Source: Spirochaetales bacterium
GTDB taxonomy: Bacteria; Spirochaetota; Spirochaetia; Treponematales; Treponemataceae
Direction: 5' to 3'
Assembly: GCA_003245785.1 (NCBI GenBank)
Contig: QKCE01000202.1
Location: 1 to 34,674 of the forward strand
Length of the DNA: 34,674 bases
Made by a program: the position numbers and the translations under genes. The notes below the pieces were generated by a model. That model was not told the origin of the DNA, did not search any database, and saw nothing but the letters and a program-made list of their open reading frames with translations. Of the stretch, positions 1,739 through 10,271 are shown in pieces (within the stretch, counting starts at the first letter, position 1; every line of letters starts with the position of its first letter).

Positions 1739-1780
1739 GATTCCTCCCGGATTCTATCTATTCTAAATTTAAATTTAAAA

Positions 1781-1798
1781 TAGTAGTAGTTATAGTAG
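1781..1798 (+). other. DnaA-trio-like array of TAG triplets
   Basis: Six consecutive triplets read TAG TAG TAG TTA TAG TAG. They are followed by the GC-rich GGGCC and then a DnaA-box-like site, and preceded by an A/T-only stretch. DnaA-trios are repeated 3'-GAT-5' triplets that guide DnaA onto one strand to open the duplex. Five of the six triplets match the best form exactly. Confidence 0.65.
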
Positions 1799-1810
1799 GG
1801 CCTGTTGAAT

Positions 1811-1819
1811 TCTGGATAA
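1811..1819 (-). other. DnaA-box-like site
   Basis: The minus strand reads TTATCCAGA, one mismatch from TTATCCACA. It is the box nearest to the TAG-triplet array, 12 bases away, as expected for the box that seeds the DnaA filament. A weaker copy (TTATCCGGG) directly abuts it at 1820-1828. Confidence 0.55.
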
Positions 1820-1884
1820 CCCGGATAAGTCCTTTTCAAGAAAAGAATTACCGTTCTGATAACTTGCCCTTTCAGGAAGCGCGG

Positions 1885-1893
1885 TTTTCCACA
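1885..1893 (+). other. DnaA-box-like site
   Basis: TTTTCCACA has one mismatch to TTATCCACA. It is followed at once by a second CCACA-ending nonamer, AATTCCACA (1893-1901), which has three mismatches. Confidence 0.5.
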
Positions 1894-1944
1894 ATTCCAC
1901 AAAACTTTATGATATTCCCATTGAACACACAGCATTCTACCATA

Positions 1945-1953
1945 TTATCAACA
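1945..1953 (+). other. DnaA-box-like site
   Basis: TTATCAACA has one mismatch to TTATNCACA and lies about 20 bases beyond the dnaA stop codon. Confidence 0.45.
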
Positions 1954-1971
1954 GGAAAAAAATAAACAAAA

Positions 1972-5428: not shown

Positions 5429-8026
5429 ATGAGTGAACAGGAACAGACCGGCGGGAGACTCATCCCGATTCCGATAGAAGAGGAAGTGAAGACCGCGTAC
5501 CTTAATTACGCGATGTCGGTCATCGTGAGCCGTGCCCTCCCGGACGTGCGGGACGGGCTTAAGCCGGTTCATCGACGAATCCTTTACTCCATGGAAGAAA
5601 TGGGCGTACGGTCGAACACCCCTTTCAAGAAATGCGGACGTATCGTCGGCGACGTACTCGGTAAGTATCACCCCCACGGTGATCAGTCCATCTACGATGC
5701 CCTGGTCCGGCTAGCCCAGGATTTCTCGCTCAGGTATACCGTCGTGCAGGGCCAGGGTAACTTCGGCTCCGTCGACGGCGACCCCGCGGCAGCCATGCGT
5801 TATACGGAAAGCCGGCTTACCAAGATCGCCGAGGCGATAATCGAGGACATCAAAAAAGAGACCGTCGATTTCGGGCCGAACTACGACGATTCCATGAAGG
5901 AGCCGACGGTATTACCCGGCGCTTTCCCTTTCCTCCTCGCGAACGGGGCGAGCGGCATCGCGGTCGGCATGGCGACGAACATGCCCCCCCACAACCTCTC
6001 CGAGATCGCCGAAGCCGTCGCGACCTATATCGATAACCCGGACTGCACGATCGAGGACCTGATGAAAAGCATCAAGGGTCCCGATTTCCCGACGGGCGGG
6101 CTGATCTTCGGCAAGCGGGGAATCCGCCAGGCATACAAGACCGGGCGCGGCAAGATCATCGTACGCGGCCGCTTTACCCTCGAGGTGGACAAGCGGGGCA
6201 AGGAGACGATCATCTTCTCCGAGATCCCCTACGCGGTAAACAAGGCCAACCTTATCACCCGAATCGCGGAACTCGTTCGCGACAAGGTAATCGACGGCAT
6301 TTCTGAAATCCGCGACGAGTCGGACCGCGAGGGCATGCGCATCGTAATCGAGCTCAAGCGGGGCGCGATCGCCAAGATCGTGCTTAACCAGCTTTTCTCC
6401 CATACGGCGCTCCAGTCCTCCTTCGGCGTGATCAACCTGGCCCTCGTGAAGGGTCGTCCCGAGACCCTGACCCTCAAGCAGCTCGTCCAGTATTTCGTGG
6501 AACACCGGGTCGAGGTAGTCACGAGGCGAACCCGCTTCGACCTGCGCAAGGCGGAAGAGCGCGCCCATATCCTCCGCGGATTGGTCGTCGCCCTCGAGAA
6601 CATCGACGAAGTAATCGCCATCATCAAGAAATCCCGCAATGTCGAGGCCGCCAAGAACGCCCTCATGGAGCGGTTCGAATTTTCCGACGCCCAGGCGCAG
6701 GCGATCGTGGACATGCGGCTCGGTAAGCTTACCAGCCTGGAAACCGAGAAAATCCTCCAGGAATTGGCCGAGATCGAGTCGCTCATCAACCACCTCAAGG
6801 ACCTGCTCGCGAACCCCCCGAAGATCCTCCAGCTCATCAAAACCGAAACGAGCGAGCTGTCGGAGCGCTTTGGCGACAAGAGGCGGACCGATATCGTGTC
6901 CGACGAGATCGAGGAAATCAATATCGAGGATCTCATCCAGAAGGAAGAGATGGTCGTGCTGATCTCGAATCTCGGGTATATCAAGAGGGTTCCCGCCTCG
7001 GCGTACAAGAGCCAGAACCGGGGAGGCAAGGGTTCGAACAGTACTAAGCTCGTAGAGGACGATTTCCTGAGCCAGCTTTTCACCGCGTCGACCCACGATC
7101 ACGTGGTTTTCATAACCAGCGCTGGTAAGGCCTATTGGATCAAGGTTCATGAAATTCCCGAGGCGACCCGGGCGAGCCGCGGATCCCATATCAAGGCACT
7201 CCTTACGGTCTCCTCCGACGAGGAGATTACGACGGTCATCGCGCTCAAGGAATTCCGGGACGACCAGTACCTGCTCATGGCTACCGCGGGGGGCGTGGTC
7301 AAGAAGGTCACCACGTCGGACTTCCAAAACGCGAAGACCCGCGGAATCATCGCGATTAAGCTCGACGACGGTGACCGGCTCATCGGCGCGACACTCACTT
7401 CGGGCTCCGACGAGATTATGCTGATCACCCGGCAAGGCCAGGCGCTCCGCATGACCGAGCAGGATATCCGCCCCCTCGGCCGCGCTTCCCGCGGCGTTAC
7501 CGGAATCAGGCTTTCCAGCGGAGACGAGCTGGCTGGCGCGCTGCGGGTCACCGAGGATACGCGCATGCTCATCATGACCGAATGCGGCTACGGCAAGCGC
7601 GTGGATTTCTCCGAGTTCACCCCCCACGGGCGGGCGACCGGCGGCCAGAAGATTTATACGATTTCCGAGAAGACCGGAGAGATAGTAGGACTGATAAACG
7701 TACTGGACGCCGACGAGGTGGTTTGCATAACCAGCCAGGGAAAGACTCTCCGAGTAAAGGCGAAAACCATTTCCGTGATGGGCAGGTCCGCCCAAGGCGT
7801 ACGCATCCTGAACATCGAGCGACCCGACATCCTCATAGGAATGGACACCGTCGCGAACGAGGACGAGGAAGCGAAGGGGCTCTCCGACGCCCATACCGGT
7901 GAAGTATCCATAGCCGGCGAGTTGGATCTTGACGGCTCGGATGAAACCCCCGTTGAAGAGACGGAAGAGTTCTCCGGGGAAGAATCCGGCGAAACGGGGG
8001 AGCAAGAGCTTCCCGACGAAGAATGA
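5429..8026 (+). CDS. gyrA: DNA gyrase subunit A
   Basis: GyrA cuts and rejoins DNA and wraps it for supercoiling. The 865-residue protein has the winged-helix region with catalytic Tyr125 (MRYTESR). A coiled-coil stretch follows, then a six-blade beta-pinwheel whose GyrA box is QNRGGKG at about 529-535, one change from QRRGGKG. An unusually acidic tail of roughly 45 residues closes it. In the quinolone-determining region the sequence is [10 protein letters not shown], so Gln86 sits where E. coli has Ser83, while Asp90 matches Asp87. This predicts low quinolone sensitivity. GGAG lies 9 bases before the ATG. Confidence 0.97.
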
Positions 8027-8065
8027 GGTAAACGGACAGAAAGGACCGTTTACATAAAAAGGAGG

Positions 8066-8114
8066 ACCGCCTGACGAGACCGGGGAACCGGCATTCGTCA
8101 GGCGGTTTTTTTTT
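8066..8114 (+). terminator. Intrinsic terminator after gyrA
   Basis: A 12-bp stem ACCGCCTGACGA / TCGTCAGGCGGT, with a small inner CCGG/CCGG stem in the loop, is followed by nine T. This is a very strong Rho-independent terminator for gyrBA. Confidence 0.93.
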
Positions 8115-8136
8115 GCCCTGACGGACGGGGCGTCGA

Positions 8137-8164
8137 TTGACGAATCCCCAAACGTAACTATATT
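8137..8164 (+). promoter_or_regulatory. Probable vapBC promoter
   Basis: TTGACG (8137-8142), a 16-base spacer and TATATT (8159-8164) lie just after the gyrA terminator. A second -10-like TATAAC at 8170-8175 is closer to the vapB start but has no matching -35. Confidence 0.5.
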
Positions 8165-8184
8165 ATCTTTATAACGGTGTCAAA

Positions 8185-8538
8185 ATGGTTAATTTAACAG
8201 TCCGAAACATACCAGAAGAAATCCTCAAACGTATACGTATATTTGCCGCCAAAGAACGCAGAAGTCTCAATAGCGAACTCCTAATGGTCATCGAGGAGGG
8301 GTTGTCCTCTCGTATTTCCGAAAACACAGGAAACCTGGGGCAGGGTGGATCTTCCCTTATTTCAAATGCCGGAAGGAAAAGAATTTGGGAAGAATTATGC
8401 GGTGCCTGGAAGGACGAACGGGAGTATGGAGAGATCCGGACAAAGGCATATGGATTCAGGACAGGTAACGAATCCAGGGAATCTTATCCTGATAAAGCGG
8501 TTACCAAAGAGGGAGGCATAATCAATGATTCTCTTTGA
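8185..8538 (+). CDS. vapB: VapB-type antitoxin (ribbon-helix-helix)
   Basis: The antitoxin partner of the PIN toxin directly downstream. The N-terminal 40 residues read as a ribbon-helix-helix DNA-binding domain of the FitA/Arc type. They have strand LTVRNIP, helix EEILKRIRIFAAKERRS, then LNSELLMVIEEGL. The C-terminal half, with IWEELCGAWKD, is probably the toxin-wrapping segment. At 117 residues it is longer than most VapB proteins (75-90), with an extra hydrophilic tail. It overlaps vapC by 14 bases, typical of coupled toxin-antitoxin pairs. No clear ribosome site precedes the ATG. The pair usually represses its own promoter. The segment is visibly more AT-rich than the flanking housekeeping genes, which suggests acquisition. 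Confidence 0.85.
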   Translation: MVNLTVRNIPEEILKRIRIFAAKERRSLNSELLMVIEEGLSSRISENTGNLGQGGSSLISNAGRKRIWEELCGAWKDEREYGEIRTKAYGFRTGNESRESYPDKAVTKEGGIINDSL

Positions 8539-8887
8539 TACGGATGTGTGTCTAGCCTTGTTGAAAGGAAACAGGAAACTGGTTGAGGGATATGCCGATT
8601 CACTGGAAGAATTGTGTGTCTCCGCAATAACCGCTCAGGAATTGTTTTCGGCTGCAAATACGTCGACCGACCCGAGTGGAAATCGTCTTCTTGCGGAGAA
8701 ATTCCTTCTGACGGTCAGGATCATTCATCCCGACATGACTGTCTTGAAATATGCGGCTGATATTCAAACAAAACTTTTACGGGCAGGAAAAAAATCTAAT
8801 TATTCTGATCTGCTGATATACAGCCTCTCGAAAGCTCATAATGCAAAACTGATAACGGCAGAAAGCAGTCGTTATTGTTTCACGTGA
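8525..8887 (+). CDS. vapC: VapC-type PIN-domain ribonuclease toxin
   Basis: VapC toxins are Mg-dependent RNases that usually cleave tRNA or rRNA and are held inactive by VapB. The 120-residue product has the PIN acidic residues in order: Asp5 (LFDTD), Glu39 (TAQEL), Asp95 (YSDLLIYS), and Glu113 at the fourth position (ITAES), where Asp or Asn is more common. GGGAGG upstream of the ATG lies inside vapB. The protein ends abruptly after the fourth acidic motif. Its last three codons and stop (C-F-T-stop) are encoded by the parS sequence at 8876-8891. A usual VapC continues about 10-15 residues more, so it may be C-terminally trimmed. Activity is uncertain. Confidence 0.85.
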   Translation: MILFDTDVCLALLKGNRKLVEGYADSLEELCVSAITAQELFSAANTSTDPSGNRLLAEKFLLTVRIIHPDMTVLKYAADIQTKLLRAGKKSNYSDLLIYSLSKAHNAKLITAESSRYCFT

Positions 8888-8891
8888 AACA
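8876..8891. other. parS site 1 (ParB/Spo0J binding)
   Basis: TGTTTCACGTGAAACA is a perfect 16-bp palindrome identical to the chromosomal parS consensus bound by ParB. It overlaps the end of vapC and lies about 7 kb from the oriC candidate, as expected for origin segregation sites. Confidence 0.93.
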
Positions 8892-8941
8892 AATTTCATA
8901 ATGTTTACTACCGTATGGGGAATACGGTTTACCCTCAGGTT

Positions 8942-8973
8942 GCTGCCGGATCAAAAGGTCCGGCAGCTTTTTT
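8942..8973 (+). terminator. Intrinsic terminator after vapBC
   Basis: A 9-bp stem GCTGCCGGA / TCCGGCAGC with an 8-base loop is followed by six T. A smaller hairpin, ACCGTAT / ATACGGT (8910-8928), lies between parS site 1 and this terminator. The rest of the gap to 9151 shows no convincing gene. Confidence 0.88.
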
Positions 8974-9151
8974 ATTTGTAGTAGATTCTTTTTAGGTCTA
9001 GATGAGTATTGCCTGCCCTCATTCAAGTTACTCGGAAACGTACGGAATGAAGTGAACAGGAAAATTGATAATATGGGGTATACAGTAATTGCTCAGAAAT
9101 TTATAAAAAAAGTAAGTTAAAGAAAATTCAAGGGTTTCCGTAGGTTAAAAA

Positions 9152-9167
9152 TGTTTCACGTGAAACA
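9152..9167. other. parS site 2 (ParB/Spo0J binding)
   Basis: This is a second perfect TGTTTCACGTGAAACA, 276 bases from the first. It directly abuts the stop codon of the leftward arfB gene. Confidence 0.93.
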
Positions 9168-9587
9168 TTATTCGCCTTCTGATTTCCAGGAACGATTTGA
9201 TTTTATCGTACTTCTTCTATGCTTTGTTTCCAGCCGTCGTAATTTGGATGCACGGGTTGCCTTGGTTGCCACTCTCTTTTTGGGGATCCTTGCCGCCCCG
9301 ATAATCAGGGTAACTATACGATCATACGCAATATCCCTGTTTTTGGATTGTGTCCGCTCTGTATCGACGGCAATAAACATGATTCCTGCAACGTCAATTC
9401 GGCTGGACAATCGGTTCTTTACGAGGTCACGCTCTTCAAGAGTAAGTCCTTCCAGGAGATCGAGCGATAAAAATGCGTGAACTTTGGTATTTACCTTGTT
9501 GACGTTTTGTCCGCCCGGTCCGCCTGATCGTGCAAAGGTGCAGGTGAGGTGTTCAGCTATGGAGGTGCGAAGAAGTTGTTCGTTCAT
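9168..9587 (-). CDS. arfB: ArfB/YaeJ-type peptidyl-tRNA hydrolase (ribosome rescue)
   Basis: ArfB enters stalled ribosomes with an empty A site and releases the nascent chain through a GGQ loop. The 139-residue product has GGPGGQNVNKVNTKV, with GGQ at 25-27. Its strongly basic C-terminal tail (KKRVATKATRASKLRR and on), rich in Arg and Lys, is the family's mRNA-channel anchor. The open frame extends further upstream, but the ATG at 9587 gives the normal family length and N-terminus. A promoter ends 6 bases before this ATG, so the mRNA may be leaderless. The stop abuts parS site 2. I saw no ssrA or smpB in the window to compare. Confidence 0.92.
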   Translation of the reverse strand: MNEQLLRTSIAEHLTCTFARSGGPGGQNVNKVNTKVHAFLSLDLLEGLTLEERDLVKNRLSSRIDVAGIMFIAVDTERTQSKNRDIAYDRIVTLIIGAARIPKKRVATKATRASKLRRLETKHRRSTIKSNRSWKSEGE

Positions 9588-9593
9588 GGCCCC

Positions 9594-9622
9594 AGTATCG
9601 GGAAGAATATCAAGCGCGTCAA
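9594..9622 (-). promoter_or_regulatory. Probable arfB promoter
   Basis: The minus strand has TTGACG (9622-9617), a 17-base spacer and GATACT (9599-9594), then GGGGCC and the ATG at 9587. The predicted transcript starts at or within a few bases of the start codon. Confidence 0.5.
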
Positions 9623-9704
9623 TACTGTGAAAATCAAGTAGTAGAAAACACAAGTATATACAGAATATAAAACCGGATGTTATAGTAATCCAAACGGGGT
9701 ATAT

Positions 9705-10271
9705 ATGCTGGGTACAATCATAGAAAGATTGAAGAAGTACGAAGCTTCGAGGTGGGACGTTTTTCCGGAGTTTGACGTATACATGGATCAACTCCTGGCG
9801 TGTGCAGGATCGTCAATTTCTTTTTCCGGACAAAACGATACCGACGACATGAGCGAAACGTCCTCGCATCATGAGGACCTGACGACTCATCGGGTGAATA
9901 ATTACGTTAAGCAGGGCTATTTGCCGAAACCCGAAAACAGGAAGTACTCGAGAGAGCATTTGGCCCGCCTTTACGTCCTCCGGATGACTAAGGGCGACGT
10001 CCCGCTTTCCCTTATTTCGGGGGCTCTCGAACGATTGATGCTCAAAGATTCGGCAAGGAAGGTGTCCGAAAATTACGCGGGGTTTCAGGAAGAGCTTATG
10101 GGCAGAATTACGAAAAGGCTCGAGGGAGAGGAAAAAAAAACGGTGGATGACGGGGATGGCCTGGATTATCTCGCGTTGTCTTTGGCCGCCGAGGCCCATG
10201 TTTTGTCGCTGGTTTCGGAAACCATCTTGTCCATGCGGAATCAGGGTTCAAACCATAAAGACGGGTCATAG
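9705..10271 (+). CDS. DUF1836 domain protein, MerR-like helix-turn-helix
   Basis: The 188-residue protein carries the DUF1836 pattern in its first half: THRVNNYVKQGYLPKPENRKYSREHLARLYVLRM, here about residues 61-94 and quoted by its parts THRVNNYVKQGYL and KYSREHLARLYVLRM. This resembles the MerR recognition region, where a dimer-binding helix-turn-helix is followed by the 'Y-S/T-R' wing. The second half is helical and acidic with no obvious ligand motif. A regulatory DNA-binding role is inferred; the target is unknown. It is divergent from arfB, and its end overlaps the nuclease gene by 31 bases tail to tail. The upstream ribosome site (GGGG) is weak. Confidence 0.75.
   Translation: MLGTIIERLKKYEASRWDVFPEFDVYMDQLLACAGSSISFSGQNDTDDMSETSSHHEDLTTHRVNNYVKQGYLPKPENRKYSREHLARLYVLRMTKGDVPLSLISGALERLMLKDSARKVSENYAGFQEELMGRITKRLEGEEKKTVDDGDGLDYLALSLAAEAHVLSLVSETILSMRNQGSNHKDGS

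What the first reader, a model, noticed from the sequence alone, without database searches (positions are those of the whole stretch)
8876..9167. Two perfect parS sites 276 bp apart next to the origin
TGTTTCACGTGAAACA occurs at 8876-8891 and 9152-9167, identical to the ParB target of B. subtilis and many other bacteria, about 7 kb from the oriC candidate. A 16-base perfect match twice in 300 bases is far beyond chance. The sites mark the likely centromere of this chromosome.
Basis: partly seen in the sequence, partly recalled or inferred. Interest (0 to 1): 0.5.

Follow-up and report, generated by a model that had tools for sequence, protein, structure and literature searches.

The report
Spirochaete centromere embedded in toxin gene
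The two sites look like genuine ParB-binding centromere sequences beside the replication origin of a treponeme-like bacterium, an ordinary feature, but one of them also forms the last codons and stop codon of a toxin-like gene, an arrangement kept in most of the relatives found to carry that gene.

Summary
The genome has a parA-parB operon, and its ParB carries the two residues reported as conserved in ParB and changed in Noc. The pair lies about 7 kb from a dnaN-dnaA gap with three near DnaA boxes. The centromere reading is supported and is a known kind of feature. parS beside gyrA is common in this order: 23 of 30 parS loci fetched had gyrA within about 1.5 kb.

It encodes the last three residues and the TGA stop of a VapC-like PIN toxin, in an antitoxin-toxin gene pair between gyrA and parS. 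The 8 clear orthologues among 274 family genomes all lie beside parS; 7 overlap one and 6 have their stop inside it. Synonymous sites are saturated, so the intact 16-mer points to selection on the DNA. In the one genome that lost this parS, the overlapping codons differ only synonymously. One relative lacks the toxin and keeps parS. The two are overlapped but separable; functional coupling is unproven.

The parts
1739..1971 (.). likely oriC: dnaN-dnaA intergenic gap with three DnaA-box-like 9-mers (one mismatch each)
5429..8026 (+). gyrA, the usual neighbour of parS in this order
8137..8164 (+). promoter-like site (TTGACG-16-TATATT, 10 of 12) ahead of the antitoxin-toxin genes; consensus match only (7 such sites found on 8000-9900, 3.4 expected)
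8185..8538 (+). ribbon-helix-helix antitoxin-like gene (FitA-like RHH); true start may lie inside the ORF
   Evidence: PF22513, 1.1e-8; no NCBIfam match
8525..8887 (+). VapC-like PIN toxin gene; last codons TGT TTC ACG TGA lie in parS1; D5, E39, D95 kept in 8 of 8 orthologues
8876..8891 (.). parS1, exact 16-mer; 8876-8887 also codes Cys-Phe-Thr-stop of the toxin
8907..8972 (+). two-hairpin element with a G-rich loop in the first hairpin, ending in an intrinsic terminator; conserved next to parS in the relatives
9152..9167 (.). parS2, exact 16-mer, abutting the stop codon of the ArfB-like gene
9168..9791 (-). ArfB-like peptidyl-tRNA hydrolase ORF (match covers residues 80-203; real start is probably internal)

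Best explanation
The two sites are the chromosomal parS centromere of a treponeme-like spirochaete. ParB (encoded on another contig, beside ParA) would load on them as a clamp, spread over the gyrA-vapBC-arfB region and, with ParA and probably SMC, move sister origins apart. The ancestral layout was probably gyrA - parS - arfB. In the ancestor of this genus and Brucepastera, a vapBC-like antitoxin-toxin pair settled between gyrA and parS so that the toxin's reading frame ends inside parS1, using its TGA as stop codon and lacking roughly the last 7-10 residues usual for such toxins. Those 12 bases are now under two constraints: ParB recognition of the DNA and the toxin's C-terminus. Shown here: the sequences, positions, conservation, and that each occurs without the other in one relative. 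Inferred: ParB binding and spreading, toxin activity, the order of events.
For: Exact sites, unique in the assembly. parA-parB operon; [quoted passage not shown] parS with gyrA within about 1.5 kb in 23 of 30 parS loci fetched, from 47 genomes with a match, and on 19 of the 24 gyrA loci with a spirochaete title among 79 fetched. Toxin orthologues: 8 of 274 family genomes at 102 bits or more, the next at 37.6 bits. Overlap with a parS (0-1 mismatch) in 7 of 8, stop codon inside it in 6 of 8. pS 0.75-0.87 against pN 0.22-0.36 in six pairs, with D5, E39, D95, R116, Y117, F119 invariant in 8 of 8. The 22 distant homologues examined have no parS up to 2 mismatches within 1 kb (or to the locus edge) and run 12-21 residues past the matched end, against 0-4 in the eight orthologues, whose matches reach residue 119 or 120; NCBIfam VapC model matched only to 115 of 130, Pfam PIN to 110 of 120.
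Against: No binding data. In ParB, S172 is N and position 184 is K, the latter a residue that PMC7383237 calls permissive for the Noc site, and the best NCBIfam score is the Noc model, though under its cut-off. SMC over cut-off and ScpB were not found in the window's own assembly; SMC is present in 6 of 6 relatives searched, so the gap may be incompleteness. ParB lies far from parS in relatives: 491 kb in G028, 423 kb in G004. The dual constraint rests on 8 orthologues in one clade. No intermediate of the insertion was found. Seven of 30 parS loci had no gyrA.
Confidence: 0.85

Rival explanations
1. Ordinary parS sites, and the toxin overlap is a packing accident with no functional meaning, as parS sites often fall in genes. 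(Compatible with the best explanation; it denies only coupling.)
For: In P. aeruginosa nine of ten parS sites are most likely inside coding sequences (PMC4368675, passage). In L046 a parS lies in frame in the 3' end of gyrA. Toxin and parS occur apart in two relatives: G010 has parS and lacks the toxin, G008 has the toxin and no parS at its stop codon.
Against: All 8 clear toxin orthologues lie beside parS, including Brucepastera, where toxin and parS are together about 34 kb away from gyrA.
Confidence: 0.6
2. Addiction-guarded centromere: the toxin pair protects the parS locus, because loss of the locus removes the antitoxin and the remaining toxin harms the cell; ParB spreading may also repress the pair.
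For: Tight linkage in 8 of 8 orthologues; toxin under purifying selection with D5, E39, D95 intact. ParB represses genes beside parS3 and parS4 in P. aeruginosa (PMC5521831, abstract). Loss of a Thermus megaplasmid lets its VapBC toxins act (PMC10085754, abstract seen among passages).
Against: A chromosome origin cannot be lost and survived anyway, so addiction adds little (reasoning). G010, sister of toxin-bearing G005 with 100/100 support, has no toxin match and keeps parS.
Confidence: 0.12
3. The motif is the target of another factor or a leftover of a plasmid origin.
For: A second, short ParB-domain protein is encoded (L004); SGI1 shows that mobile DNA can carry copied parS sites (PMC10954446, passages).
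Against: Neighbours are dnaN, dnaA, gyrB, gyrA, the gyrA-parS position recurs in other families of the order, and the toxin had only 2 matches in 72,556 plasmid records, both under 30% identity.
Confidence: 0.03

Closest known systems
Chromosomal parABS (B. subtilis, Caulobacter, P. aeruginosa; in spirochaetes Borrelia, PMC9712426, passages)
   Same: 16-bp palindrome near the origin, ParA and ParB encoded; Borrelia likewise has a parS site near oriC bound by ParB
   Different: Here two sites; parAB on another contig and hundreds of kb away in two relatives (Borrelia has it close to parS); one site ends a toxin-like gene
VapBC / FitAB type II toxin-antitoxin modules
   Same: RHH antitoxin gene followed by an overlapping PIN toxin gene, D-E-D acids kept
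   Different: Toxin is shortened at its C-terminus and its stop codon is supplied by parS; below NCBIfam cut-off for VapC (49.5 against 140 bits)
SGI1 with parS copies and a toxin-antitoxin system (PMC10954446, passages)
   Same: A stability element holding both ParB sites and a TA system
   Different: SGI1 is mobile and uses a plasmid's ParB; here it is the chromosome's own centromere and the two overlap physically

Membership tests
chromosomal parS | match to the 16-bp palindrome | tested here: met
   the consensus is recalled
chromosomal parS | origin-proximal position | tested here: met
   6.9-7.1 kb from the dnaN-dnaA gap
chromosomal parS | cognate ParB of parS (not Noc) specificity in the genome | tested here: met
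   R173 and G201 equivalents present, but N at 172 and K at 184; TIGR00180 over cut-off (186.9 of 58.45), TIGR04285 Noc under cut-off (237.7 of 315)
chromosomal parS | ParB binding in vivo | not testable with these tools
   needs ChIP-seq or EMSA
chromosomal parS | SMC-ScpAB loading partner encoded | tested here: inconclusive
   SMC over cut-off in 6 of 7 genomes, not in G000; ScpB not found in G000 (not searched in relatives)
VapBC type II TA | PIN toxin with catalytic acids | tested here: met
   PF01850 2.2e-12; D5, E39, D95 in 8 of 8; that these are the catalytic acids is recalled knowledge of PIN domains
VapBC type II TA | upstream, overlapping antitoxin gene | tested here: met
   8185-8538 and 8525-8887
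VapBC type II TA | toxin inhibits growth and antitoxin neutralises it | not testable with these tools
   needs expression assay
NCBIfam VapC models | score over the curated cut-off | tested here: not met
   49.5 of 140 and 30 of 143 bits

The most novel reading that the evidence does not exclude
The toxin pair and the centromere form one selected unit in this treponeme clade: ParB loaded at parS1 controls expression of the genes whose toxin ends in parS1, so that weak ParB occupancy of the centromere releases the toxin and arrests growth (a centromere-occupancy checkpoint).
Probability: 0.08. Interest if true: 0.75.

Novelty: new variant of a known kind. Interest (0 to 1): 0.35.

Why it matters
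The parS sites themselves are ordinary. The overlap is a natural case of one short DNA stretch apparently held by two selections, a centromere and a toxin C-terminus, with relatives in which each occurs without the other. It also gives a marker for the centromere in uncultured treponeme genomes (3' side of gyrA), and a testable question: whether ParB spreading governs a toxin-antitoxin pair.

Tried and rejected
Horizontal transfer of a vapBC-parS unit into Brucepastera (G028). Identities looked discordant: its toxin is 60% identical to the window toxin against 42-53% for G011, G005, G001 and G008, although its GyrA is only 79% identical against 82-87% for those four (table). The antitoxin-toxin data reject the gyrase tree (p-AU 0.0007), but the gyrase data do not reject the toxin tree (p-AU 0.135), and that tree can be rooted on G028, so vertical descent with unequal rates suffices. 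Not excluded, not needed.

Integron cassette array between gyrA and vapBC in G028: the ORFs there are mostly on one strand, but no family of attC-like direct repeats was found (L154 whole and L155 1-14000: 0 families and one 2-copy 30-mer; repeats with indels can be missed). Dropped.

A new structured RNA between the parS sites: the two-hairpin element folds well (z -4.36), has two-sided changes in 7 of 17 predicted pairs, and no Rfam family at gathering score in the window (four sub-threshold matches). The model gave matches of 44 bits or more at this locus only, in 7 of the 60 genomes searched; six of those seven were among the sequences the model was built from. Seven weaker matches (26-32 bits) look like plain terminators. 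Most likely a terminator; a small RNA is not excluded. The first hairpin is degenerate in G010.

Stop codon hidden in an mRNA hairpin made by the palindrome: weak (z -1.12, 22 of 200 shuffles as good).

Tail pattern outside the clade: 34 of 274 family genomes hold TAYN followed by parS; among the 30 loci fetched, an open frame ending in parS that resembles the toxin was seen only in the genus and G028.

Print: no title, nor abstract beginning as shown, in the listings of searches is about parS inside a toxin gene or beside gyrA in treponemes. Those listings were capped (for example 15 of 54, 10 of 98), only open-licence papers are held, and I read passages or the abstract of six papers, no whole text.

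Full report
OBSERVATION. The two 16-mers are exact, at the stated places, and beyond chance. They are the only matches up to two mismatches in the held assembly (84.45% complete, 353 contigs, the window being contig C154 whole). Genes on the window include dnaN and dnaA (minus strand), gyrB and gyrA (plus), an RHH-PIN gene pair, an ArfB-like gene (minus) and a DUF1836 gene. The dnaN-dnaA gap has 3 of the window's 8 near DnaA boxes (3.47 expected in the window). The closest GyrA relatives in genome contigs are Spirochaetales and Treponema MAGs and Brucepastera parasyntrophica.

IS IT A CENTROMERE? A parA-parB operon is on contig C240. Read against Caulobacter ParB in the alignment, the ParB has R and G at the positions of R173 and G201, which PMC7383237 (passages) calls absolutely conserved in ParB and changed in Noc; it has N for S172 and K at 184, a position said to vary among ParB proteins. 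All 8 relatives searched have a ParB over cut-off. SMC is over cut-off in 6 of 7 genomes searched, the window's own being the exception, and ScpB was not found in the own genome. In the relatives sample 47 of 59 genomes have parS up to one mismatch. In the genus 8 of 12 do. In the other four no strong GyrA match was found either (35-39% matches in three, none in one), so their origin contig is probably missing. Of 30 parS loci, one per genome, 23 have gyrA within about 1.5 kb; the 7 without are L005, L007, L008, L009, L012, L019, L023. L012 is cut by a contig end. From the other side, 19 of 24 gyrA loci with spirochaete titles carry a parS; L043, L045, L049, L052 and L063 do not, L049 ending just after gyrA.

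THE OVERLAP. parS1 reads TGT TTC ACG TGA in the frame of the PIN gene: its last three residues and stop codon. parS2 abuts the ArfB stop codon. The PIN orthologue (102 bits or more) is in 8 of 274 family genomes, other matches being at 37.6 bits or less. For these eight: G000, G001, G002, G004 and G028 have an exact parS holding the stop codon. G005 has one mismatch. G011 has an exact parS read in another frame with the stop right after it. G008 has no parS there but three one-mismatch sites 151-267 bases downstream. There the gene pair and the single parS lie about 34 kb from gyrA (no other site up to 3 mismatches in the 54 kb read).

TWO CONSTRAINTS. Between orthologues synonymous sites are saturated (pS 0.75-0.87) while pN is 0.22-0.36 in the six pairs computed, so the toxin is under purifying selection. 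Against that background an intact 16-mer in 6 of 8, and a seventh with one mismatch, implies selection on the DNA. In G008, without the site, the coding part differs at three bases, each synonymous (TTC to TTT, ACG to ACA, TGA to TAA), while R116, Y117 and F119 are invariant in 8 of 8. In G010, sister of G005 with 100/100 support, no toxin match was found and two sites remain, one exact and one with a mismatch. So each persists without the other, which speaks against strict interdependence.

ORIGIN OF THE OVERLAP. The 22 distant homologues examined, of the lower-scoring places, lack a nearby parS and continue 12-21 residues beyond the matched end, and the VapC and PIN profiles are unmatched at their last 15 and 10 positions. 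The simplest inference is that the pair landed against parS and lost its own tail and stop codon. The gyrA-parS order without the pair, also with an ArfB-like gene next to parS in another family (L010), suggests that parS was there first. Tree tests do not demand horizontal transfer, though the toxin data alone reject the gyrase tree.

HOW IT MOST LIKELY WORKS. ParB loads at both sites and spreads; transcription of the pair, perhaps from a promoter-like site at 8137-8164, runs through parS1 and stops at the terminator 8942-8972. Repression of genes beside parS by ParB is known in P. aeruginosa (PMC5521831, abstract), so ParB may dampen the pair; this is inference. parS inside genes is not new: nine of ten in P. 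aeruginosa most likely are (PMC4368675, passage).

VERDICT. Observation confirmed, interpretation supported, feature ordinary; the centromere-toxin overlap is a new variant worth a bench test.

Noticed in passing
window 8907-8972 and orthologous places in 7 of 60 genomes searched, own included: Conserved two-hairpin element with a G-rich loop and a UCCAUCAGG-like linker ahead of the terminator, with two-sided pair changes and no Rfam family at gathering score.
   Followed up: partly
G028:C1:1371569 and G004:C6:62099: parB lies 491 kb and 423 kb from parS in these two relatives; in L048 a parA-like gene directly follows gyrA and parS (read by eye).
   Followed up: partly
loci L121-L142, mostly genus g3: Clusters of up to ten parS-like sites (0-1 mismatch) within 2 kb, gyrA on most of these loci.
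   Followed up: no
L154-L155 (G028:C1:1832001-1862000): About 30 kb of ORFs mostly on one strand between gyrA and the toxin pair in Brucepastera; no attC-like repeat family found.
   Followed up: partly
L046 6443-6458: parS in frame inside the 3' end of the gyrA coding sequence in another spirochaete.
   Followed up: partly
G028:C1:1826724-1829277: The gyrA match in the Brucepastera record is split into three pieces, with one TAA counted inside; sequencing error or real break not determined.
   Followed up: no
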